Below, in pieces: positions 21,414 to 40,947 of a DNA stretch of 40,947 bases (the stretch's first letter is position 1; each line of letters opens with the position of its first letter). Origin of the DNA: a virus; the IMG/VR virus record IMGVR_UViG_3300025889_000269, positions 1 through 40,947 of that record; one strand, written 5' to 3'. Made by a program: the position numbers and the translations under genes. The notes below the pieces were generated by a model that saw nothing but the letters and a program-made list of their open reading frames with translations, searched no databases and was not told where the DNA came from.

Positions 21414-21953
21414 CTATGCTGCGTCGAGGATTTTGAGCCCGTAGTGCATCCTCTCGACCCCCAATCGGTCGGGTTGCCGGGCTCGTTCGACGAAATACCC
21501 TTTTCCAAAACAGACGAACTCCACCGCGTTACCCGCGTAACGAACTTTCTCCAAGATGGGTTGCGCGGTGCGCCACGGGCCCGACCAAGTCTTGATCTCA
21601 ACGGTCAAGACGCGGTCCAGAGACACGGGCCCCTTGGCGACAAACCAACAGTCTGTATCCAACTGTCCGAGGTTCGCCGCGTAATGCAGCAAAGTCCCTT
21701 TGTGGGCCGGTTCCCACTCCGGGTTTGCGTCGATAGCGGCTTCCCACGGCTCGAACTCGGCGGCATCGAAGCCGATCCGAACCCGGGGGATTTCCTTCTG
21801 GCAACAAGCCGCGACCGTGCGGTCTCCGTTGGGGTTTGACGTCGCCCAAACGTAGTCGCCGGGCCAATCGGCGTTCGCCGGGCTGCCAATCAGGGCCCCC
21901 TCGGCGAAGATATACGGCAGATGGGCGAGAGAAGTGTGGTGATAAACTTTCAT
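21414..21953 (-). CDS. ART-like moron protein, 179 aa (function unproven)
   Basis: Begins YHHTSLAHLPYIFAEGAL, close to the 'YHxT..hLp.I...Gl' opening of ADP-ribosyltransferase-fold enzymes such as DarT and RNA 2'-phosphotransferases. Later it has a Trp-rich centre, and FVCFGKGYFVERARQ near the C terminus supplies possible catalytic Glu/Arg residues. No full ART catalytic set can be confirmed by eye, so the enzymatic role is a guess. It lies one base after the integrase stop in the same direction and before a terminator, a typical place for a lysogenic-conversion or defence gene. No antitoxin is seen. Confidence 0.4.
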   Translation of the reverse strand: MKVYHHTSLAHLPYIFAEGALIGSPANADWPGDYVWATSNPNGDRTVAACCQKEIPRVRIGFDAAEFEPWEAAIDANPEWEPAHKGTLLHYAANLGQLDTDCWFVAKGPVSLDRVLTVEIKTWSGPWRTAQPILEKVRYAGNAVEFVCFGKGYFVERARQPDRLGVERMHYGLKILDAA

Positions 21954-24102: not shown

Positions 24103-24324
24103 ATGTCCAACTTGATTGATCTCCGGCCATTCTGGAACCGCAAACCCGACGTCGTGAGACTGCGCGTCGTCAACGACCCTTACACCATCAAAGTGACAGG
24201 CGTCAATACCGAGAAACATTCGAGTTTTTCCCGGCTCCGTGACGCCGCCGATTGGCTCCGCGACGAAGGCTACGAATGGGTCGTTGGCTCAAACGGTCTC
24301 TGGGCTCGGGCAGCGGTCCAATGA
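24103..24324 (+). CDS. Hypothetical protein, 73 aa
   Basis: ATG 24103 behind AAAAAAAGGAACCACACC, a strong ribosome site. A small mixed alpha/beta protein with FSRLRDAADWLRDEGYEWVV as a clear amphipathic helix. The stop overlaps the next gene by 4 bases (ATGA), so they are coupled. No family recognised. Confidence 0.6.
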   Translation: MSNLIDLRPFWNRKPDVVRLRVVNDPYTIKVTGVNTEKHSSFSRLRDAADWLRDEGYEWVVGSNGLWARAAVQ

Positions 24325-24713
24325 AAAAGGTCGCTGCAATCACGGCGGCGTGTCTTCTGGCATCCGCATGTTCGTTTCCGCGCCCGGTCGTCTTTCTCCA
24401 TGAAGACGATCAGGCCGACAAACTCGACGAAACCATAATGTACTGCGAGAAACTCGCCCGCGACTTTGGGCACCCGCAAGCCAAATACACGATGTATGCG
24501 GCTGGCGCGGGGGCTCTTGGGGGTGCGGCTCTTGGGTACGCAGACGACACCCAAAACGACATGTCTCAAGAAGGATGGGCGGGGGTCGCGGCGCTGGTCG
24601 CTGCGGGCTCCGTCGCCATCATGGCTTGGGCGGTCGCTGAGAAGAAGAACACCCAGCTTTACAAACAATGCGTCTCCGAGCGGCACCCCGTCTCGGATTG
24701 GAAACTCTTTTGA
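24321..24713 (+). CDS. Lipoprotein with glycine-rich membrane segments, 130 aa
   Basis: The true start is ATG 24321 (ATGA overlap); the longer upstream frame lacks a signal. MKKVAAITAACLLASAC is a lipoprotein signal with Cys17. Two hydrophobic Gly/Ala-rich segments follow (YAAGAGALGGAALGY and GVAALVAAGSVAIMAWAV), like a glycine-zipper hairpin. An early-expressed lipoprotein with a membrane hairpin suits superinfection exclusion or control of the envelope, but that is inference. Confidence 0.65.
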   Translation: MKKVAAITAACLLASACSFPRPVVFLHEDDQADKLDETIMYCEKLARDFGHPQAKYTMYAAGAGALGGAALGYADDTQNDMSQEGWAGVAALVAAGSVAIMAWAVAEKKNTQLYKQCVSERHPVSDWKLF

Positions 24714-24728
24714 ACAGGAAAGACACGA

Positions 24729-24938
24729 ATGTCCGACAATTCTCCGAGCCTCAATTTCGAGCAACGTCTACGGGCCGCCCACGCCCACTTTATCCTCGGC
24801 GTCAAACAACATGACGTCGCGGCGATCCTGAGTGTCAATGCCGGGCGGGTCGCAGAAGCCTGTAAGGCGGTCGAACTGGCTCTCCAAGACCCGAAAGAGA
24901 CGTCGGAACTCTTGAAAGAGCTTTACGGCAATGAGTGA
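24729..24938 (+). CDS. Small helical protein, 69 aa
   Basis: ATG 24729 after AACAGGAAAGACACGA. All-helical, with VKQHDVAAILSVNAGRVAEA resembling a helix-turn-helix and an acidic end (DPKETSELLKELYGNE). The 3' end overlaps the next gene by 8 nt. Possibly a small DNA-binding regulator; not proven. Confidence 0.55.
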   Translation: MSDNSPSLNFEQRLRAAHAHFILGVKQHDVAAILSVNAGRVAEACKAVELALQDPKETSELLKELYGNE

Positions 24939-25329
24939 CGAAAAAGACCCGCACGGCATCGAACAGCATGAGCCCGGTGCAAAACTCGACGAAGGCAAGA
25001 CCCGGGTGGGTCTTGTCTTGGGGGGTTTCCCGAACGCCCTAGAACAGGTGTCTCGGGTGGGTACTTTTGGGGCCAACAAATACACAGAGTTCGGCTGGCT
25101 CAAAGTCCCCGACGGTCAGTCCCGATACACCGACGCGATGCTGAGACACTTCCTTGCGGAGTGCAAAGGCGAACTGATCGACCAAGACAGCGGCATGTTT
25201 CACGCGGCGCAGACCGCTTGGAACGCGCTGGCGCGTCTTGAATTGATGATCCGAGACATGAAAGGAACCACAGACCATGAGCGGATTAAGAAAACAGTAC
25301 AACCAAGCGATAGCGAAAATACTGGATGA
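24931..25329 (+). CDS. dATP/dGTP diphosphohydrolase N-terminal-domain-like protein (DUF5664), 132 aa
   Basis: The pattern GAKLDEGKTRVGLVLGGFPN, then GTFGANKYTEFGWLKVPDGQ, RYTDAMLRHFLAE and a terminal MFHAAQTAWNALARLELMI matches the small phage family annotated as dATP/dGTP diphosphohydrolase N-terminal domain, related in context to MazG-type nucleotide pyrophosphatases. It would act on purine dNTP pools during replication. Metal ligands are probably the Glu/Asp of LAECKGELID and the His of FHAAQTAWN. Only the N-terminal domain is present; no MazG domain and no PurZ partner is visible in the window. Confidence 0.7.
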   Translation: MSDEKDPHGIEQHEPGAKLDEGKTRVGLVLGGFPNALEQVSRVGTFGANKYTEFGWLKVPDGQSRYTDAMLRHFLAECKGELIDQDSGMFHAAQTAWNALARLELMIRDMKGTTDHERIKKTVQPSDSENTG

Positions 25330-25687
25330 CGCGAAGAGTGTCACCGGCTGGGAGTTTGTGCCAGGTGGCAAACACCGCAAATTGCTGATCCACGGAAAAT
25401 CCAGATCGGTGAAACTTCCGGTCCCGTGGAGCCCCAGCGACAGACGCGGAGTGTTAAACCTTATGTCTCAGCTTAGACGGATTGCGGCATCGTTGTGTGT
25501 CTTGGTGTCTCTGGTTGGTTGCTCGGATTTCCGGCCCGTGATCGACCTCAAAGCCTCGGGCCCCAAAGCCCAAGACGCGCAACTCGACGAAATGCACTGT
25601 GGGTGGTTGGCTGAACGCTACGATCTCGACGAAGAAACTGCGATGCGGAAGTGTCTCAGTGGGCGAGGGCACAGTGTCCTTAATTGA
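25277..25687 (+). CDS. HicA-like domain continuing into a lipoprotein frame, 136 aa
   Basis: ATG 25277 has AAAGGAACCACAGACC upstream and overlaps the previous gene by 53 nt. Residues 1-68 look like a HicA-type double-stranded-RNA-binding fold: VTGWEFVPGGKHRKLLIHGK with the key His in GGKH, then SPSDRRGVLNLMSQLRR. The same frame then runs through LRRIAASLCVLVSLVGCSDF, a perfect lipoprotein signal, to the stop. Either the full product is a fusion or two proteins are made from nested in-frame starts. No HicB antitoxin is seen next to it. Confidence 0.55.
   Translation: MSGLRKQYNQAIAKILDDAKSVTGWEFVPGGKHRKLLIHGKSRSVKLPVPWSPSDRRGVLNLMSQLRRIAASLCVLVSLVGCSDFRPVIDLKASGPKAQDAQLDEMHCGWLAERYDLDEETAMRKCLSGRGHSVLN
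25463..25687 (+). CDS. Nested in-frame lipoprotein, 74 aa (alternative start)
   Basis: From the internal ATG 25463 the frame reads MSQLRRIAASLCVLVSLVGC: basic start, hydrophobic core and lipobox LVGC with Cys20, followed by a soluble 54-residue part containing two more cysteines. GGAG stands 12 nt upstream, a weak but usable ribosome site. A signal in the middle of a cytoplasmic fold makes little sense unless this start is used, so I list it separately. Confidence 0.5.
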   Translation: MSQLRRIAASLCVLVSLVGCSDFRPVIDLKASGPKAQDAQLDEMHCGWLAERYDLDEETAMRKCLSGRGHSVLN

Positions 25688-25874
25688 TATAGTCCGTGCG
25701 ATGGAACGCAAGGAACGCTGTCAACAGTGCGCCGAAATCGCAGAACACTTCCGGGAAGCCGTGACCAAAGTCACGGCGGTCCACACCCGCGCGGTCGCCA
25801 TGCGTAACGCGCTGCCCCCCGGCAGCCACGCATGGGAGATCGTCAACGAAATCATAGAAGGGAACGAAACTTAG
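25674..25874 (+). CDS. Small helical protein, 66 aa
   Basis: GTG 25674 with GCGAGGGC upstream is favoured; it overlaps the preceding gene by 14 nt. All-helical, with CxxC near the start (CQQCAEIAEHFREAVTKVTA) and an acidic end. It stops 1 bp before the resolvase start. Possibly a small zinc-binding or dimerising accessory protein of the replication operon; function unknown. Confidence 0.5.
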   Translation: MSLIDIVRAMERKERCQQCAEIAEHFREAVTKVTAVHTRAVAMRNALPPGSHAWEIVNEIIEGNET

Positions 25875-25875
25875 G

Positions 25876-26370
25876 ATGTTTTTTATAGGTATCGACCCCG
25901 GGGTCTCAGGGGCGATTGCGCTCTACGACCCCAAGACACAGAAAGTGGAAGTCCGAGACATGCCGGTGGCGACGATGCGTGTCTCGGGCAAGAACCGCAA
26001 CCGTGTCATGGAGCCCGTCTTCGCTGACATTCTCCGGGGCTGGTATCTGACCCGCGATGTCTTCGCGCTGGTCGAACAGGTGAACTCCATGCCCAAACAG
26101 GGGGTGGCGAGTACGTTCACTTTTGGAATGAGTTTCGGGATTTGCACTGGCGTCTTGGCCGGGGTCGGTATCCCGTTCGATACGATGCGACCTCAAGAGT
26201 GGAAAAAACTCGTTCGTGTCGGGCAAGGCAAAGATGCGTCCCGGGCGCTGGCAGCAAAATTATTCCCGTCTCAGGCAGATTTGTTCGCCCGTAAAAAGGA
26301 TGACGGTCGCGCCGACGCTTGTTTGTTGGCTATGGCGGCCAACAAAATTACTGAACACGACAAAAAATGA
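25876..26370 (+). CDS. RuvC-like Holliday-junction resolvase, 164 aa
   Basis: RNase-H-fold endonuclease resolving branched DNA before packaging. Acidic residues are at the expected places: Asp7 in FIGIDPGVSGAIAL, Glu67 in FALVEQVN and Asp142/143 and Asp147 in KKDDGRADACLLA. GVASTFTFGMSFGICTGVLA is the typical helix between the second and third motif. Length equals bacterial RuvC (about 170). It is followed by a promoter-like sequence and the helicase gene. Confidence 0.88.
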   Translation: MFFIGIDPGVSGAIALYDPKTQKVEVRDMPVATMRVSGKNRNRVMEPVFADILRGWYLTRDVFALVEQVNSMPKQGVASTFTFGMSFGICTGVLAGVGIPFDTMRPQEWKKLVRVGQGKDASRALAAKLFPSQADLFARKKDDGRADACLLAMAANKITEHDKK

Positions 26371-26399
26371 TTGTCAAACATAACAACCTGTACTATTTA
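26371..26399 (+). promoter_or_regulatory. Second early promoter, upstream of helicase gene
   Basis: TTGTCA (26371-26376), a 17-base spacer and TATTTA (26394-26399). The -10 hexamer is identical to that of the promoter at 23712. It lies in the only gap (about 90 bp) inside the replication operon and points to the helicase and downstream genes. Confidence 0.6.
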
Positions 26400-26463
26400 A
26401 CGATCAGACGCCCTTCATCGGCGCTCTCGTAGAACTGTAGAAACGCTAACCGGAACTCTCTTG

Positions 26464-27849
26464 ATGAACCTCCCTGTAACTCCGCCCCTCAGACCGTATC
26501 AAGTCGAAGGGGCATCTTTTTTAGCCTCGAACGACCGCGCCGGTTTATTTGATGACTGCGGCCTCGGGAAGACCCCACAATCACTGACCGCTGCGAAAGA
26601 CGTAGACGCGAAATCTATCCTCGTCGTTTGCCCTGCGGTCGCCCGGTACAACTGGGAGCGGGAGACCCGGCGCTGGTTCGATGCGAACGCTACTACATTC
26701 GTAGTTACCTCGAAACTCAAGACAGGGCTCCCCGCGCCGATCAAAATCGCGAACAAAGCTGTCGTGATTGTATCTCACGATTTGCTGACAGATGCGGGCA
26801 CCCTCGACACGCTGTTTAATCACGATTGGGACGTCCTGATCGTTGACGAGGCGCACTTTCTGAAATCCAAAGGCGCGAAGCGTACCAAGGCTGTGTACGG
26901 CACCCGCTGTGACTTAAAGGGGAAATCCCTCGCCGCGAAAGCCAAACGCACTTGGATATTGACGGGTACGCCCGCCCCCAACCACGCCGGGGAACTCTGG
27001 ACCCATTTGCGGGCGCTGTACCCGCAAGCAATCCCGGGTGTCTCGGGCAAGCCAATGGGCGAACAAGAATACATCGGGAACTATTGCCGGGTCGAAGTGA
27101 CCAACTGGGGCGTCAACGTCGTCGGTTCAAAAGACATGAAAGAACTGCGTCGCCGGATGGCCGGGTTTTATATGCGTCGTCTCAAGAAAGATGTTCTGAA
27201 AGACTTGCCGCCCGTGACGGTTACGTCTGTGCCGGTGTCTCTCAAGGAAATGGACGGCGAAGACATGAATAAGGCGCTGTCGTCGCACTCAGACGCGAAA
27301 CACTTGGCCGACGCTGCCGAGAACATGTCCGAGAACGACCTCGTTGATTTTATGAAATCACATGCGACCGAATTAGCCACATATCGCCGTCATACTGGCC
27401 TTTTAAAACTGCCCGTTTGTCTCGAATGGTTAAAGACGGAGATGGCGTCGGGAAACAAATACATCGTGTTCGCCATCCACCATGAAGTGATCGACAAGAT
27501 AGTCGAACACATGGCGGCGTTCAACCCGGTTAAGATCGACGGGCGAGACACTGCTAAAGACAGGGATCGGGCGGAACAAGTATTTATGAAAGACCCGAAT
27601 TGCAAGTTAATTGTTGGACAGATTGCGGCGGCGGGAACTGCGCTCACGCTGACCGCTGCATCAGACGTCGCGTTTTTCGAGGCCGATTGGGTGCCGTCAA
27701 ACAACTATCAAGCCCTGTCTCGGGCCCACCGATTTACCCAGACCCGGGGCGTCGTCGCTCGGTTTCTGACCCTACCCAACTCAATCGACGACATCATCAA
27801 CCGGGCCTTGGTTCGCAAGACCCGGGAACTCACCGAACTGTTTGGATAG
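26464..27849 (+). CDS. SF2 (SNF2/DEAD-like) helicase, 461 aa
   Basis: ATG 26464 chosen over the TTG directly before it. The motifs are in order: LRPYQVEGASFL (Q-like), GLGKT (about residues 33-37; Walker A), VLIVDEAHFLKS (DEAH, about 128-131), WILTGTPAPNHAGELW (motif III), YIVFAIHHEVIDKIVEHM (motif IV) and NYQALSRAHRFTQTRGV (motif VI, Arg finger). Such phage helicases remodel replication forks or help recombination. It has its own promoter and is followed by the recombination-type genes. Confidence 0.9.
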   Translation: MNLPVTPPLRPYQVEGASFLASNDRAGLFDDCGLGKTPQSLTAAKDVDAKSILVVCPAVARYNWERETRRWFDANATTFVVTSKLKTGLPAPIKIANKAVVIVSHDLLTDAGTLDTLFNHDWDVLIVDEAHFLKSKGAKRTKAVYGTRCDLKGKSLAAKAKRTWILTGTPAPNHAGELWTHLRALYPQAIPGVSGKPMGEQEYIGNYCRVEVTNWGVNVVGSKDMKELRRRMAGFYMRRLKKDVLKDLPPVTVTSVPVSLKEMDGEDMNKALSSHSDAKHLADAAENMSENDLVDFMKSHATELATYRRHTGLLKLPVCLEWLKTEMASGNKYIVFAIHHEVIDKIVEHMAAFNPVKIDGRDTAKDRDRAEQVFMKDPNCKLIVGQIAAAGTALTLTAASDVAFFEADWVPSNNYQALSRAHRFTQTRGVVARFLTLPNSIDDIINRALVRKTRELTELFG

Positions 27850-35585: not shown

Positions 35586-35739
35586 ACATGGTTCACGACA
35601 TGGTTGCTACATGGTTACAAGGTTAAGGGTTAAGTCATTGAAATCATTACGACATGGTTCATTTTCGACATGGTTCCGACATGGTTACATGGATAAGGGC
35701 TAAGTCATTGATTTTAAAGCTACATGGTTCGACATGGTT
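35586..35739. repeat. Iteron array, replication-origin candidate
   Basis: The 8-mer ACATGGTT occurs at 35586, 35598, 35609, 35652, 35668, 35679, 35722 and 35732, with a degenerate ACATGGAT at 35687. Within clusters the spacing is mostly 8-12 bases (one 16), roughly one helical turn. Two clusters end in a second shared element, TAAGGGYTAAGTCATTGA (starting at about 35624 and 35694), which makes a larger repeat unit of about 65-70 bp. The block is AT-rich relative to its surroundings and directly follows the RepB-type primase-helicase. Origin of replication is the most economical reading; a pac or partition site is possible. Confidence 0.7.
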
Positions 35740-35747
35740 GGTCAAAA

Positions 35748-35813
35748 CGCCTTGACGTCCCCGGTGGCACCCCCCATAGAGGGGTGGGGTGCCTCCCGGG
35801 GGGACGTTAGGCG
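35748..35813. repeat. Long imperfect inverted repeat
   Basis: CGCCTTGACGTCCCCGG... (from 35748) faces ...CCGGGGGGACGTTAGGCG (to 35813) with an inner GGCACCCC/GGGGTGCC pair and a short AT-containing loop. About 25 of 28 stem positions pair. It follows the iterons and may be a terminator in both directions or a cruciform of the origin. Confidence 0.6.
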
Positions 35814-35850
35814 GCGAGTATAACTATGTGTTATCTAACGAAGTGTGATA

Positions 35851-35934
35851 ATTTTCGTACCTCGTACAATCTCGGAAATTTTGGAATTTTCGTACCGCGT
35901 ACAATCTCCGAATTTTCGTACCTCGTACAATCTT
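35851..35934. repeat. Three 23-bp GTAC-type direct repeats
   Basis: ATTTTCGTACCTCGTACAATC and two near-copies start at 35851, 35886 and 35912; the middle copy reads CCGCG where the others read CCTCG. Each unit holds GTAC-N3-GTAC, itself a small dyad. The spacing is 35 and 26 bases. These could be binding sites for a dimeric regulator or a second class of origin repeat. Confidence 0.65.
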
Positions 35935-35939
35935 TGAAA

Positions 35940-36813
35940 TCAGGCGCGGCGGCGGAGGGGCAGGCCTCGCTCCCGCCCGGGCCCGCGCGGCGGCCGCGCG
36001 TGTCTCAAGACGGCGTCTCGCCGTCTCGGCCCGAGACCGAGACGGCGAGACGCCGCCCCGGGCGTTAAAACTAAAACCGCCGCGCGACGTTCCGGCGTCA
36101 AAAATCTTACGACCCGGCCCCGGTTTTTTTTCTCGATCTCGACCCGGCGGCGCTCGACCTCGACCCGGTCGCCGATCTCGACCTCGACCCGGCGGCGCTC
36201 GACCTCGACCCGGCGGCGCTCGACCTCGACCCGGTCGCCGATCTCGACCCGGCGGCGCTCGACCCGGTCGCCGATCTCGACCCGGCGGCGCTCGACCCGG
36301 TCGCCGATCTCGACCCGGTCGCCGCCCCGGGGCCGACGTGCCCGGGCCCGCCGCCGATCTCGACCTCGACCCGGTCGCCGACCTCGACCCGGTCGCCGAC
36401 CTCGACCCGGTCGCCGACCTCGACCCGGTCGCCGACCTCGACCCGGTCGCCGCCCCGGGGCCGACGTGCCCGGGCCCGCCGCCGACGGCGGGGCCGGGAT
36501 AGGGCCGCCCGCCCTCGGCGGCGTCTCTCGCCGATCTCGCCGCCCCGGGGCCCGCCGCGCGACGTCGAGCGGGGCGAGAGACGCCCAAAAATGGCCCGCC
36601 AAGGGCCGACAAGGGCCCGCCGGGGCCTCGACCCGCCCCGGGGCCCTCTCGGCCCCGTGCGGGTAAAAAAAAGGGCCCCGGGTCTCTCGACCCGGGGCCC
36701 TCGGCGGGCGTCTTATTTTTTCCGACCTCGACGCCGTCGCCGGGCGACGTGCCCGACCTCGGCGCATAGGGCCCCGACCAAAACGGCGAGGGCCCCAAGG
36801 GCCGCCGGTATAA
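35940..36813. repeat. GC-rich low-complexity intergenic DNA
   Basis: About 870 bp with no credible gene. An 18-bp unit CTCGACCCGGTCGCCGAC is repeated in tandem (36365-36452, four full copies and one partial). A 47-bp segment at 36311-36357 recurs exactly at 36439-36485. From 36130 to 36310 the same words (CTCGACC, CCGGCGGCG, GATCTCGAC) are shuffled irregularly. Long open frames here arise because the repeats lack stop codons. The terminator of the leftward CobT-like gene lies inside at 36665-36700. Confidence 0.7.
36665..36700 (-). terminator. Intrinsic terminator of the CobT-like gene
   Basis: On the minus strand GGGCCCCGGGT pairs perfectly with ACCCGGGGCCC (11 bp) over a 6-base loop, followed by eight T. 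It lies about 110 bp after the stop of the CobT-like gene. Confidence 0.88.
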
Positions 36814-38709
36814 TCACCGGGCGGCCCCCAATTGCCGGGCGAGAATGTCGAGACCGGCGGCCCCAAGGTCGCGCACGTCGTCGATTTTTTGGGCGACCTT
36901 GAACGCCCGCACGTCGGACCCGCCGCCGATGCCGAGCCCGGCGACCTCGACGCCGACGCTCTCGGCATAATCGACCGCCGCCCGCAAGGCCCAAGGGCCG
37001 CACCCGCACCCGCCGTCGGTCAAGACTAGCATGATCCGCCGGTTCACGTTCGCGACGTCGCGCAAGCGCAAGGCCCCGGCGACGACCGACGACGTGATAT
37101 TCGTTCCGCCGCCGAGAGAATATTCGGCCTTGCCGATATTCTCGACCGCCGCCCGGTTCCAAGCCTCGGCCAAGGTTTTGACGGCGTAAACGGTTTCGCC
37201 GCCGCGAAAACCCATGATCTCGAACGGCACCCCGGCGGCCTTTAAAGCCTCGCCCAAGTGAACGGCGAGACCGCAAGCGGCGTGGATACGACGGCCCCCC
37301 ATGCTCGGCGAAAGGTCGAGTATGAGCGAAACGACGCTATTGACGGCGTCTTGTTTGCGCCGGGTCCGAAAGACGTTTTTTCGGCCCGCCCGCATTGCCG
37401 GGATTGCGCGAACGTCGAGACGCCCGGCGTCTTGCCAGCGCCGCCTGTCGGTTCGGCCCGGGGCCCGGACAATCGCCCGGACTTGGGTTTTCAGTTTCGA
37501 CGGCACGGCAATGTCGGCCTTGGCCCGGTCGGCCCCGGCGGCCATGTCGGAACCTCGAAAAGTTTTCTGTATCTCGCGAGAGACCGGCGACCGGGTCAAA
37601 ATGCCGTTCCAGACGTCAACGCCGTCGGCGTCAATGCCAAGGTCGGCGGCGACGCCGTCGGCGGTCGGTTCGGCGTCTTGCAAATTGTCGAGCCCGCCGC
37701 CGGTCCAATCGTCGCCGCCCTTGCCCGCGCCGTCGCCGGGCTTGTCGCCCTGGTCGCCCTGGTCGCCCTGGTCGTCGCCCTGGTCGTCGCCCTGGTCGTC
37801 GCCCTGGTCGTCGCCCTGGTCGCCCTGGTCGTCGCCCTGGTCGCCCTGGTCGTCGCCCTGGTCGTCGCCCTGGTCGTCGCCCTGGTCGCCCTGGTCGCCC
37901 TGGTCGCCCTGGTCGCCCTGGTCGCCCTGGTCGTCGCCCTGGTCGCCCTGGTCGCCCTGGTCGCCCTGGTCGTCGCCCTGGTCGTCGCCCTTTTCGCCGG
38001 GCCCGGGTTGCGGTTCGGGGCCTTGCTGGTCGGCGTCGAAAAGGTCGAGCAAATCGCGAGCGATTGCGACGACGTCGGCGGTCGAGCCCGCCCGGTCGAG
38101 CCGGTCGAGCGTATCGCGGACGATTGCCGATTGCGCCGGGCCGAGAGCCCCGGCGAGCCCGGCGGCGGCGGGCACGTTATAACCGCACAAATCGACCCGA
38201 CCCAAAACGCAAAGGGTCCAAAGGGCCCCGCCCGGGCCGTTCGGGTTAAACCCGCCGCGCACGGCGTCGGCGTGTAACTGGTCGATCAAACGTTCGAGAC
38301 AATCGCGGAACCGACCGGCGACCTTTTCGCGAATTGAAACACGTTCAATTCGCACGTCTTCGAGGGCGTTTATAATACGATGGAAAGCCGTTTGTTTGCG
38401 ATACTCGACCGCACGCACGGCCTCGTCCCATGCCTCGGTGTCGGTCCAAAGGTTGTGCGAAATTTCGTGCAGAATATACGCCGTGAACATGTCGGCTTGG
38501 TCGCGGGTCATAGACCCGGCGACCGGCAAAGCGGGCATGTTTAAATCGACGCGCATGGTCGAGCCGTCGCGCCCGGACCCGTAAAAACGGGTCCAAGCGG
38601 TCGAGCCCGAGCAAAGCACTTTGACCTTTGCCTTGACGCCCGCCCGCGCCAAAAATTTTTGGGCGGTCGGGCCGACGGCGGCGAGGAAATCGGTGTTTTT
38701 AACCTTCAT
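36814..38709 (-). CDS. CobT-like protein: HExxH metallopeptidase-type domain, DQG repeat, VWA domain, 631 aa
   Basis: N-terminal region with HEISHNLWTD (HExxH at 81-85) and a helical RIINALEDVRIERV segment, as in CobT-like and VWA-linked putative metallopeptidases. Residues about 241-320 are 23 tandem DQG or DDQG units. The C-terminal VWA domain starts near 464 with the MIDAS motif LDLSPSMGG and continues with GGGTNITSS and MLVLTDGGCGCG. Partner of the upstream AAA+ ATPase, as CobT is of CobS; cobalt chelation is unlikely since no cobalamin genes are near. It may be a remodelling machine of unknown target. Composition differs strongly from the phage block. Confidence 0.82.
   Translation of the reverse strand: MKVKNTDFLAAVGPTAQKFLARAGVKAKVKVLCSGSTAWTRFYGSGRDGSTMRVDLNMPALPVAGSMTRDQADMFTAYILHEISHNLWTDTEAWDEAVRAVEYRKQTAFHRIINALEDVRIERVSIREKVAGRFRDCLERLIDQLHADAVRGGFNPNGPGGALWTLCVLGRVDLCGYNVPAAAGLAGALGPAQSAIVRDTLDRLDRAGSTADVVAIARDLLDLFDADQQGPEPQPGPGEKGDDQGDDQGDQGDQGDQGDDQGDQGDQGDQGDQGDQGDDQGDDQGDDQGDQGDDQGDQGDDQGDDQGDDQGDDQGDQGDQGDKPGDGAGKGGDDWTGGGLDNLQDAEPTADGVAADLGIDADGVDVWNGILTRSPVSREIQKTFRGSDMAAGADRAKADIAVPSKLKTQVRAIVRAPGRTDRRRWQDAGRLDVRAIPAMRAGRKNVFRTRRKQDAVNSVVSLILDLSPSMGGRRIHAACGLAVHLGEALKAAGVPFEIMGFRGGETVYAVKTLAEAWNRAAVENIGKAEYSLGGGTNITSSVVAGALRLRDVANVNRRIMLVLTDGGCGCGPWALRAAVDYAESVGVEVAGLGIGGGSDVRAFKVAQKIDDVRDLGAAGLDILARQLGAAR
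37741..37990 (-). repeat. Coding tandem repeat (DQG/DDQG units)
   Basis: The 9-bp unit TGGTCGCCC and the 12-bp unit TGGTCGTCGCCC alternate irregularly, 12 and 11 times, within the CobT-like gene. The frame is always kept. Such arrays change length by slippage in steps of three or four residues, so the linker between the two domains of the protein may vary among relatives. Confidence 0.85.
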
Positions 38710-38722
38710 GGTCTCGCCCCCC

Positions 38723-40255
38723 TTATGCGTTCACGTTGTCGAGATCGAGGGCGTCAAAGCCCAAGCGGGTCTCGACGTCGTCGGTCGATTGCGGGGCCGC
38801 GCCGTCGGGCGACGGTAAAGCCTCGCCCCGGGCGAGGGCGTCAATAACGGCGTGATCGAGCCCGCCGACGCCGTCGCCGATCTCAAGTTGCCGGTATATC
38901 TCGACGTGCGCCGGGTCGGCCAAATTGACGACCGCCATATTGAAAGCTTCGGCGCTTGGGAAACCGTCGGCGACAAGTTCGGCCCAAGCAAAAACGCGAC
39001 GGGGCGAGAGCCCGGCGCAATCGTTGCCTTTTTGCCGGGTCAGGCCCGCGAACGTGACCAGCTTGTCGGCGGTCGCCCGGTTTAAACCCGTGCGGGCCTC
39101 GACAAGCGCGACCTCTTTGGCCTTGGGCAAATAACCGACCGGAATTGAGACGGCGGCGCGGTCGAGGAAAGCGGCGTTCATAGGGCCGGTCCCGTGATAC
39201 TCGCCGGTATCGTCGCCATGCCCGGCGGTATTGTCGGCGATTGCAAAGACGACGCCCTCGGCGGCCTCGACGACCTCGCCGGTTTCGAGCGTAACGCGCC
39301 GAGTGTCCAGAACCGTTTGAAGGGCGTGTAACATGCCGACCGGCGCAAGGGTCGGTTCGTCGAGCAAAATTATCGTGCCCGGGCGGCGCATGGCGGCGAC
39401 CAGAACGCCGTCTTGCCAAACGACGCCGCCGGTCGGTTCGGGGACGACCATACCGAAAAGATGCACTGGTTCCATATCGGCGTGAAAACCAATGCGAACG
39501 TGCGGGCGACCGGTCCAAGCGGCGACCTGTTCGCAAAACGTCGTCTTGCCGACGCCGCGCGGGCCGTGCAACCAGATATTTTTCCCGCGCCGCCAAACGG
39601 CGAGGGCATAGGATAAGACTGTTTTATCCCATGCCATCTTTTTATCGCGGGCCGGGGCGTCGGCGGCGTTCCATATTGAAACCGGGAAATCAGACCCGTC
39701 GAGCGTAAGGCCGAAAACGTCTTTCCGGGTTTTGGTCTCGACGACCCGGGCCGGGGCGACCGTCGGGGCCTTTGCGACCGGCGCGGCGGGCGTCGGCATT
39801 GCGACGACGTTCGAGCCCGGGGCCGCCATTGCGGCGGCGAGACGTGCCGACGTCTCGGCGGCGGCGGTCTCGGCGTCGAGGGCCCGGGCGGCCAAGGTCT
39901 CGACCCGGGCGGCCATGTCGGCGATTGAACCGCTCAAAATATCGCGGGCGATTGCGTCGGCGGTCTCGCCGTCTTGGGTCTCGACCGGGGCGGCCTCGAC
40001 CTCGACGACCGGGGCGGCCTCGACCTCGACCGGGGCGGCGACCGGCGCGGCGACCGGCGGCGTTGCCGGGGCGAAAACGTCTTTCGCATATTGCCGGGCG
40101 TCGATACCGAGGGCGGCGGCGGCCTTTTCGAGACCGGCGACCGTAAGGCCGCCCGACGTGACGCCGTGCGCATCTTTATAGTCGCCCCATGCCGGGCTGT
40201 TTGTGATCGCCGCTTTTAAAGCCGTGCGGCCTTCGCTTGTGTATGTGTTTGTCAT
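38723..40255 (-). CDS. CobS/MoxR-like AAA+ ATPase, 510 aa
   Basis: Start at 40255 with CAAGGAACC 8 nt upstream; the open frame extends further but without ribosome site. Residues 1-60 form a helical domain (GLTVAGLEKAAAALGIDARQ). Residues 62-170 are low-complexity Ala/Pro/Val/Glu (EVEAAPVVEVEAAPVE) with a coiled part. The ATPase shows Walker A GPRGVGKTTF (231-240), Walker B GTIILLDEP (293-301), sensor-1 FAIADNTAG and LDRAAVSIPVGY. This matches CobS-type MoxR AAA+ proteins. It stands 13 bp before the CobT-like gene, and together they form a chaperone-like pair. Confidence 0.85.
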   Translation of the reverse strand: MTNTYTSEGRTALKAAITNSPAWGDYKDAHGVTSGGLTVAGLEKAAAALGIDARQYAKDVFAPATPPVAAPVAAPVEVEAAPVVEVEAAPVETQDGETADAIARDILSGSIADMAARVETLAARALDAETAAAETSARLAAAMAAPGSNVVAMPTPAAPVAKAPTVAPARVVETKTRKDVFGLTLDGSDFPVSIWNAADAPARDKKMAWDKTVLSYALAVWRRGKNIWLHGPRGVGKTTFCEQVAAWTGRPHVRIGFHADMEPVHLFGMVVPEPTGGVVWQDGVLVAAMRRPGTIILLDEPTLAPVGMLHALQTVLDTRRVTLETGEVVEAAEGVVFAIADNTAGHGDDTGEYHGTGPMNAAFLDRAAVSIPVGYLPKAKEVALVEARTGLNRATADKLVTFAGLTRQKGNDCAGLSPRRVFAWAELVADGFPSAEAFNMAVVNLADPAHVEIYRQLEIGDGVGGLDHAVIDALARGEALPSPDGAAPQSTDDVETRLGFDALDLDNVNA

Positions 40256-40324
40256 GGTTTGTTGGTTCCTTGTGTTTAGTCGGTTCGAGTGTTTGCCGTC
40301 GGGCGGCGTCGCCCGACACGTCAA

Positions 40325-40353
40325 TATATAACAATGTGTGATATAGAACGCAA
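40325..40353 (-). promoter_or_regulatory. Promoter of the CobS/CobT-like operon
   Basis: On the minus strand TTGCGT (40353-40348), a 17-base spacer and TATATA (40330-40325). Between it and the start codon lies a perfect 8-bp hairpin GTCGGGCG/CGCCCGAC (40298-40317) that would sit in the 5' leader of the mRNA. Confidence 0.6.
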
Positions 40354-40379
40354 GCGCGGCGTCGGGTATCATCCCGGGC

Positions 40380-40808
40380 ATGGCAAACAAAAACCCGACG
40401 CAATCCGAGACGTTCAAAACCAAGCGGGCCGCCGCCGGTTTTGGGTCGCCGTTCGCGACCGCCAAGACGTGCGCCGGTTGGTCGCGACAAAACGACCGAC
40501 CATGTCGGAACCGGGCGGCGTGGGGCCTCGAACATTGCCGGTATCATTTGACCGGGGCCGACCGCGCGGCCTTGCGAAACAATCCCGACCATAAACCGAC
40601 GCCCGAGCGTCGAGCCCGACACGCCCGCCGACAAGCGGCGCTCGACGCAATCCAAGACGCGCCGCCCGACGTCTTACGCTTGCCGGTATATCGGGCGGCC
40701 CGGTCTCTCGCCGAGAGGGCCGCCGTCGTTCTCGCCTATGTCGCCGCCCAAGCGGGCGACGGTCGGGCGTGGGCCGACCTAACGGGGCGTTATAATGCAA
40801 ACAGATAG
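40380..40808 (+). CDS. Cys/His zinc-binding phage protein, 142 aa
   Basis: The central motif CAGWSRQNDRPCRNRAAWG followed by C and H in EHCRYHL is a C-C-C-H zinc site of the 'CgartrsGtPCr..a..G...C..HGG' type found in small phage proteins often placed before terminase genes. Both flanks are Arg/Ala-rich and helical. It is divergent from the ATPase gene, and its 3' end overlaps the terminase-small-subunit-like start by 14 nt. The role is unknown, perhaps DNA recognition in packaging or HNH-like accessory function. Confidence 0.62.
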   Translation: MANKNPTQSETFKTKRAAAGFGSPFATAKTCAGWSRQNDRPCRNRAAWGLEHCRYHLTGADRAALRNNPDHKPTPERRARHARRQAALDAIQDAPPDVLRLPVYRAARSLAERAAVVLAYVAAQAGDGRAWADLTGRYNANR

Positions 40809-40947
40809 TGATATTATCCTCGCCGCTTTGCGCGACGTCATAAACGATAAGACCGCCGCCGCCGCCGCGCGGGTCCAAGCGGCGCGAACGCTCGCCGAGA
40901 TCGCGGGCCTATTGGGCAAGCACCAAGACGCGCCGACCCGACCCGGC
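40795..40947 (+). CDS. Terminase small-subunit-like N terminus (3' truncated by window)
   Basis: 51 codons are visible without stop. ILAALRDVINDKTAAAAARV, then QAARTLAEIAGLLGKHQDAP, is the pattern of the helix-turn-helix plus helix at the beginning of many small terminase subunits and related phage HTH proteins. It overlaps the zinc-binding gene by 14 nt, the usual arrangement of this pair. The remainder lies outside the window, so identity cannot be settled. Confidence 0.5.
   Translation, partial: MQTDSDIILAALRDVINDKTAAAAARVQAARTLAEIAGLLGKHQDAPTRPG

What the first reader, a model, noticed from the sequence alone, without database searches (positions are those of the whole stretch)
25277..25687. 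HicA-like toxin fold whose C terminus is a lipoprotein signal
One frame encodes a HicA-like domain (GGKH motif) and, from internal ATG 25463, a perfect lipoprotein precursor whose signal peptide is made from the last helix of the HicA-like part. Two products with different compartments from one frame would be a compact overprinting-like arrangement rarely noted. No HicB is adjacent.
Basis: partly seen in the sequence, partly recalled or inferred. Interest (0 to 1): 0.65.

Follow-up and report, generated by a model that had tools for sequence, protein, structure and literature searches.

The report
Two phage genes sharing one frame
In this phage a small gene for a protein resembling an RNA-cutting (HicA-type) enzyme has no stop codon of its own and runs, in the same reading frame, into the next gene, which makes a small membrane lipoprotein that other phages carry as a separate gene; it is a curious variant of a known way of packing phage genes.

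Summary
In detail: 25277-25687 (+) is one open frame of 136 codons. Its first ~72 residues are HicA-like and an internal ATG at 25463 begins a textbook lipoprotein precursor (MSQLRRIAASLCVLVSLVGC|SDF).

The two parts belong to unrelated families that are separate genes elsewhere. The lipoprotein part belongs to an unnamed phage lipoprotein family: 149 loci in viral contigs. All 80 that I read are stand-alone genes with their own start and signal peptide, ending in RGH, mostly RGHS[VI]LN, with two conserved mature cysteines. A second member lies 750 bp upstream in this same phage (24321-24713). The HicA-like part matches stand-alone phage families weakly (phrog_2053, phrog_2089). It fails Pfam HicA, and no HicB was found in the window with the one HicB profile used. 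Both starts have Shine-Dalgarno sequences.

Best reading: two neighbouring early genes overlap in the same frame, so the upstream gene has lost its stop. The lipoprotein is made from 25463. Anything made from 25277 is a 136-residue HicA-like/lipoprotein fusion, not a simple cytosolic toxin. This is not overprinting, because the shared codons are read once. M13 gene I/XI is a precedent for internal in-frame starts. The arrangement was seen in only two near-identical contigs.

The parts
25277..25687 (+). Single open frame, 136 aa: HicA-like domain followed by lipoprotein precursor
   Evidence: junction identical in a second IMG/VR contig covering 25364 onward
25260..25268 (+). Shine-Dalgarno-like GAAAGGAAC for the 25277 start
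   Evidence: duplex energy -9.6 kcal/mol, reached by 3% of random window ATGs
25277..25492 (+). HicA-like (dsRBD-type) domain, residues 1-72, GGKH at residues 30-33
   Evidence: phrog_2053/2089/3655, E 1.2e-4 in own record, L105 relative, AF2 alpha-beta-beta-beta-alpha pLDDT 75, VIA Z 4.0 to HicA 6g26_F, not above unrelated rows
25447..25455 (+). Shine-Dalgarno-like CGGAGTGTT for the 25463 start
   Evidence: duplex energy -6.9 kcal/mol, reached by 12% of random ATGs; similar to several starts of this phage; weakly folded region
25463..25687 (+). Lipoprotein precursor gene, 74 aa
   Evidence: homologous to stand-alone pelagiphage lipoproteins
25463..25519 (+). Signal peptide MSQLRRIAASLCVLVSLVG, lipobox LVGC; its n-region overlaps the last HicA-like helix
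   Evidence: read from sequence; model helix 56-71/76
25520..25684 (+). Mature lipoprotein domain, lipidated Cys then two Cys conserved in the family, ends RGHSVLN
24321..24713 (+). Second lipoprotein of the same family (longer, glycine-rich insert)
   Evidence: second-best of 597 ORFs with the pelagiphage profile, E 3.7e-4; shares phrog_22235 with pelagiphage HTVC111P protein
24931..25329 (+). Upstream neighbour, dATP/dGTP diphosphohydrolase N-terminal-like protein; overlaps the 25277 gene by 53 bp in another frame
   Evidence: Pfam PF18909 E 3.6e-26
25674..25874 (+). Downstream small ORF (GTG 25674), overlaps the lipoprotein end out of frame

Best explanation
Two unrelated early genes of a temperate phage overlap in the same reading frame. 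The downstream gene (25463-25687) encodes a small envelope lipoprotein, translated from its own ATG and Shine-Dalgarno, exported by Sec, lipidated at Cys20 and cleaved by LspA. Ser at +2 favours sorting to the outer membrane. The upstream gene (25277 start) encodes a HicA-like dsRBD-type domain that no longer has its own stop, so ribosomes starting there read on and make a 136-residue fusion with the signal peptide and lipoprotein in its middle and C-terminus. That fusion is probably anchored in the inner membrane with the HicA-like domain in the cytoplasm, or is cleaved by LspA after insertion. Both products come from one mRNA, much like M13 gene I/gene XI. Shown: the frame, the two starts, both homologies, the stand-alone state elsewhere. 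Inferred: initiation at both sites, export, membrane topology of the fusion, and a role of the lipoprotein in blocking superinfection (like T5 Llp, perhaps 1 in 3).
For: Lipoprotein part: homologues in Pelagibacter phages HTVC202P, 111P, 112P and 026P and 149 viral loci. In all 80 loci read it is a stand-alone gene, and in 79 the first in-frame Met lies at most 21 residues after the preceding stop. The family start matches ATG 25463. HicA-like part: phrog_2053/2089, the stand-alone relative L105 whose stop falls right after the last helix, and the AF2 topology with His33 in beta 2. Both starts have Shine-Dalgarno pairing (-9.6 and -6.9 kcal/mol). The in-frame junction is identical in a second contig. 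Neighbouring genes also overlap. M13 gene I has an internal in-frame start giving gp11, which keeps the transmembrane segment but lacks the cytoplasmic domain (PMC5408679).
Against: No expression data. Codon usage in the HicA-like half is atypical (-0.009 against an in-frame 5th percentile of 0.152), although it is still the best frame, so the half could be decaying or newly acquired. Only one phage lineage (two near-identical contigs) shows the arrangement, so its conservation cannot be tested. No relative of the full 136-aa protein was found in phage records, viral contigs (apart from the near-identical one) or bacterial genomes.
Confidence: 0.62

Rival explanations
1. Only the lipoprotein matters. 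The HicA-like gene is a remnant that lost its stop (for example through an indel or stop mutation) and is no longer selected; its fusion product is rare or degraded.
For: Atypical codon usage of the HicA-like half; no fused relatives anywhere; none of the 48 records searched with phrog_2089, nearly all lipoprotein-bearing, matched except the one that supplied L105.
Against: Strong Shine-Dalgarno at 25277; intact GGKH and PSDR motifs and a foldable domain.
Confidence: 0.22
2. One fused protein only: a membrane-tethered HicA-like domain with a periplasmic tail, translated from 25277, with no use of 25463.
For: Continuous frame; strongest Shine-Dalgarno is at 25277.
Against: All 80 lipoprotein homologues read start just before the signal peptide, matching ATG 25463; 25463 has its own Shine-Dalgarno; a signal peptide 62 residues inside a protein is a poor export signal (general knowledge).
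Confidence: 0.08
3. One reading: a functional cytosolic HicA toxin and a separate lipoprotein, deliberately encoded in one frame.
For: HicA-like motif, no HicB match with the profile tried, two starts.
Against: The long product necessarily carries the hydrophobic segment and so is not a free cytosolic HicA; Pfam HicA is not matched even at E 10.
Confidence: 0.05
4. Assembly or sequencing error removed a base and joined two genes that overlap out of frame.
For: Stops occur in both other frames close to 25463 (read from the sequence); neighbouring genes overlap out of frame.
Against: A second IMG/VR contig is identical through 25364-27068, its only two differences from the window being at 27069 and 28092.
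Confidence: 0.03

Closest known systems
M13/f1 gene I and gene XI (gp1/gp11), PMC5408679
   Same: Internal in-frame start in a phage gene gives a short form that keeps the membrane segment and periplasmic part and lacks the cytoplasmic domain.
   Different: There both forms belong to one protein and work in one complex; here the two parts are unrelated families found as separate genes elsewhere, and the short form is a lipoprotein.
Pelagibacter phage lipoproteins (HTVC202P gp08, HTVC111P gp07, HTVC112P gp05, HTVC026P gp09)
   Same: Signal peptide plus lipobox, [YF][RK]P[VI][IV]D after the lipid Cys, two mature cysteines, C-terminal RGHS[VI]LN or close to it.
   Different: Stand-alone genes with no HicA-like extension; the window protein has a shorter spacer between the two cysteines.
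phrog_2053 / phrog_2089 small phage proteins (HicA-like), L105 relative
   Same: GW..v.GGKHxK ... PSDxR ... LR motif set over about 65 residues.
   Different: L105's gene stops right after the last helix, and the PHROG profile matches end near residue 70; here the helix runs into a signal peptide.
HicA mRNA interferase of HicAB toxin-antitoxin systems (PMC7180214)
   Same: alpha-beta-beta-beta-alpha topology predicted, histidine in beta 2.
   Different: No match to Pfam HicA, no HicB match in the record with the profile tried, activity unknown.
T5 Llp superinfection-exclusion lipoprotein (PMC9586334)
   Same: Small phage lipoprotein made early in infection.
   Different: No sequence relation was tested or seen; likeness is of kind only.

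Membership tests
HicA toxin (Pfam PF07927, HicAB systems) | Match to the HicA family profile | tested here: not met
   PF07927 gives no match in the record at E <= 10, while 13 of 14 control genomes ring
HicA toxin (Pfam PF07927, HicAB systems) | dsRBD-type fold with histidine in beta 2 | tested here: inconclusive
   AF2 alpha-beta-beta-beta-alpha, His33 in strand 32-36, pLDDT 75; VIA-align Z 4.0 over 53 residues to HicA 6g26_F, tied with unrelated rows; Foldseek has no significant hit
HicA toxin (Pfam PF07927, HicAB systems) | Partner HicB antitoxin | tested here: not met
   PF15919 no match at E <= 10 in the record; other HicB profiles were not tried, and the record may be incomplete
HicA toxin (Pfam PF07927, HicAB systems) | RNA cleavage and growth arrest | not testable with these tools
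   needs expression in a laboratory strain
phrog_2053/phrog_2089 HicA-like small phage proteins | Profile match over most of the domain | tested here: met
   whole-record E 1.2e-4 for phrog_2053; library E 0.004 and 0.003 over residues 6-69: weak but covering the domain
Phage RGHSVLN lipoprotein family (unnamed; pelagiphage type) | Type II signal peptide and lipobox at the protein's own start | tested here: met
   MSQLRRIAASLCVLVSLVGC from ATG 25463; same place in homologues
Phage RGHSVLN lipoprotein family (unnamed; pelagiphage type) | Mature domain with two conserved Cys and RGHS[VI]LN or similar end | tested here: met
   mature-only profile E 1.3e-5, best of 597 ORFs; Cys 45 and 11 residues from the end in all 80 homologues read, 29 and 11 here
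Phage RGHSVLN lipoprotein family (unnamed; pelagiphage type) | Stand-alone gene | tested here: not met
   in-frame open extension of 67 codons here, while 79 of 80 homologues have at most 21 residues before the first Met
In-frame overlapping genes with internal start (M13 I/XI type) | Initiation at both starts | not testable with these tools
   only Shine-Dalgarno support, -9.6 and -6.9 kcal/mol

The most novel reading that the evidence does not exclude
The fusion is selected: the phage uses one mRNA to make a free outer-membrane lipoprotein and a second form in which a HicA-like RNA-binding or RNA-cutting domain is held at the inner face of the membrane by an internal lipoprotein signal, perhaps released or re-set by LspA cleavage. 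That would be a membrane-tethered RNase-like protein whose tether is itself a lipoprotein precursor.
Probability: 0.12. Interest if true: 0.65.

Novelty: new variant of a known kind. Interest (0 to 1): 0.3.

Why it matters
It is a clean, testable case of two unrelated phage genes joined in one frame, with products that would go to different compartments. It also exposes a widespread, unannotated phage lipoprotein family (149 viral loci; no Pfam match and no convincing PHROG match for the members tested). Its position among early genes, with two members in one phage, makes it a candidate for superinfection exclusion in alphaproteobacterial phages.

Tried and rejected
tblastn of the whole protein against phages: none; of the HicA-like part: only chance hits; against plasmids: none. 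Bacterial genome scans with P0001 and with the two-sequence HicA alignment found no relatives. L108 proved a false match in another frame of an unrelated gene. A DNA-pattern scan for the HicA-like motif gave nine loci, of which only L105 is real. PDB sequence search of the HicA-like part gave only chance hits to repetitive proteins. The single-sequence AF2 model of the whole 136 aa is too poor to use (pLDDT 52) and its Foldseek hits are not significant. Gordonia phage gp51, labelled 'HicA-like toxin', was only a weak hit (E 0.09) to L105 and matches no PHROG, so I do not rely on it. Microcystis phage Mae-Yong1326-1 and Rhizobium phage RHph_N65 share the portal protein but have no phrog_2053 match; reading the ORFs before the resolvase of Mae-Yong1326-1 showed no HicA-like or lipoprotein gene of this family.

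Full report
WHAT IS THERE. The window is an IMG/VR virus record of 40,947 bases from a temperate phage with an integrase, a repressor and a P22-like portal protein. Its portal is related to those of Microcystis phage Mae-Yong1326-1 and Rhizobium phage RHph_N65. The reported frame 25277-25687 exists exactly as described: 136 codons, ATG at 25277, internal ATG at 25463, no stop between them.

THE LIPOPROTEIN PART IS A GENUINE, SEPARATE FAMILY. tblastn with the part from 25463 gave weak hits (E 0.1-0.3) to Pelagibacter phages. Read out, these are stand-alone genes with signal peptide, lipobox and a C-terminus almost identical to the window's, e.g. MRKCVSQRGHSVLN against MRKCLSGRGHSVLN. A profile built only from the four pelagiphage proteins, run against all 597 stop-to-stop ORFs of the window, puts this ORF first (E 1.8e-6; 1.3e-5 for the mature part alone) and the window's other lipoprotein, 24321-24713, second (3.7e-4; 1.8e-3), with nothing else below 1. 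A motif search of viral contigs found 149 relatives, of which 80 were fetched. In all 80 the gene stands alone; in 79 the first in-frame Met lies at most 21 residues after the preceding stop, the exception having 52. All 80 end in an RGH motif and keep Cys residues 45 and 11 from the end. The window protein keeps both cysteines (29 and 11 from its end). No Pfam model matched the three pelagiphage proteins or the window part, and PHROG matches were weak. The family start coincides with ATG 25463, so that ATG is very probably a true start.

THE HICA-LIKE PART IS REAL BUT REMOTE. PHROG families 2053, 2089 and 3655 match residues 6-72, with the matches ending near the ends of the short profiles. 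Within the record phrog_2053 gives E 1.2e-4. A motif scan found one stand-alone relative, L105 (IMGVR_UViG_3300009553_000027), with the same GW..V.GGKHxK ... PSDxR ... LR pattern and a stop just after the last helix. It matches the same PHROGs strongly (3.6e-10), finds only this ORF in the window (E 1.6e-4), and scores 18.6 bits against 11.6 for the best of 2000 shuffles. AlphaFold with these two sequences gives alpha-beta-beta-beta-alpha with mean pLDDT 75 and His33 in the second strand, where HicA has its catalytic histidine (PMC7180214). A HicA crystal chain (6g26_F) appears at Z 4.0 over 53 of its 60 residues, but unrelated chains score the same, so the fold search is inconclusive. Pfam HicA does not match and Pfam HicB_lk_antitox is absent from the record. 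I call it HicA-like, not HicA.

HOW THE TWO MEET. In L105 the HicA-like gene stops after the last helix. Here, at that place, the frame stays open, and the helix residues MSQLRRIAAS double as the positively charged start of the signal peptide. The hydrophobic core and lipobox lie beyond the HicA homology. Because it is the same frame, nothing is overprinted; the upstream gene simply has no stop of its own. The 67 codons open upstream of 25463 are the longest such extension among 28 starts examined, but a stretch of about 66 open codons is expected by chance at 14% of out-of-frame positions here. The neighbourhood is crowded: the upstream gene overlaps by 53 bp and the downstream one by 14 bp, both out of frame. 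The junction is identical in a second contig, whose only two differences from the window over 4.5 kb lie at 27069 and 28092, which speaks against an assembly error.

TRANSLATION. Pairing with the 16S tail is strong at 25277 (-9.6 kcal/mol, top 3% of random ATGs) and fair at 25463 (-6.9, top 12%), similar to or better than several other genes of this phage. The mRNA around 25463 is less folded than shuffles. Codon usage supports the frame clearly in the mature lipoprotein part (0.229) and only marginally in the HicA-like half (-0.009, the best of the six frames there but below the 5th percentile of the phage's genes). The HicA-like half may therefore be recent or decaying.

MECHANISM, WITH STATUS. 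Shown by sequence: one frame, two starts, two families, separate elsewhere. Inferred: both starts are used; the short form is exported, lipidated and, with Ser at +2, sorted to the outer membrane; the long form is held in the inner membrane by the internal hydrophobic segment with the HicA-like domain inside, or cut by LspA. M13 gene I/gene XI is a proven case of an internal in-frame start in a phage gene whose short product keeps the membrane part and lacks the cytoplasmic domain (PMC5408679). Other in-frame pairs are discussed in PMC6854812. For the lipoprotein I favour superinfection exclusion, as with T5 Llp, a small lipoprotein made early (PMC9586334): it lies among early genes in the window, sits beside a regulator in the pelagiphages, and two members occur in this phage. 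That is inference from context only.

VERDICT. The finding is an in-frame overlap (gene fusion with a retained internal start) between two unrelated phage genes, a variant of a known kind, known from one phage lineage only. The more general result is the unannotated phage lipoprotein family.

Noticed in passing
24321-24713: A second lipoprotein of the same family as the one in the finding, with a glycine-rich insert; two family members in one early operon.
   Followed up: partly
L017-L096; L012, L013, L014, L016: A widespread phage lipoprotein family (149 loci in viral contigs, largely related to Pelagibacter phages) without a Pfam match in the members tested, with two conserved mature cysteines and a mostly RGHS[VI]LN C-terminus.
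   Followed up: partly
36000-40947: G+C content jumps from about 0.57 to 0.64-0.72, and the block carries a CobT-like VWA protein with a long GDQ repeat (36814-38709, -) and a MoxR/CbbQ-type AAA ATPase (38723-40465, -); it may be of different origin from the rest of the record.
   Followed up: partly
36131-36485 and 37744-37991: Dense GC-rich tandem arrays (units of 18-21 and 9-12 bp), the second inside the VWA gene.
   Followed up: no
35596-35933: Long direct repeats (70 bp and 35 bp units, about 1.9 copies each) just before the G+C jump.
   Followed up: no
24931-25329: Pfam calls this the N-terminal domain of a dATP/dGTP diphosphohydrolase (E 3.6e-26), while the best PHROG (5033) is labelled 'endolysin; inhibits RNA polymerase'; the PHROG label looks wrong.
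   Followed up: no
21414-21953 (-): A 179-aa protein next to the integrase, no Pfam match at E 0.01; a possible cargo gene.
   Followed up: no
L105, 3020-2700 (-): The stand-alone HicA-like gene is followed by a gene whose start overlaps its stop out of frame; whether that neighbour is an antitoxin was not tested.
   Followed up: no
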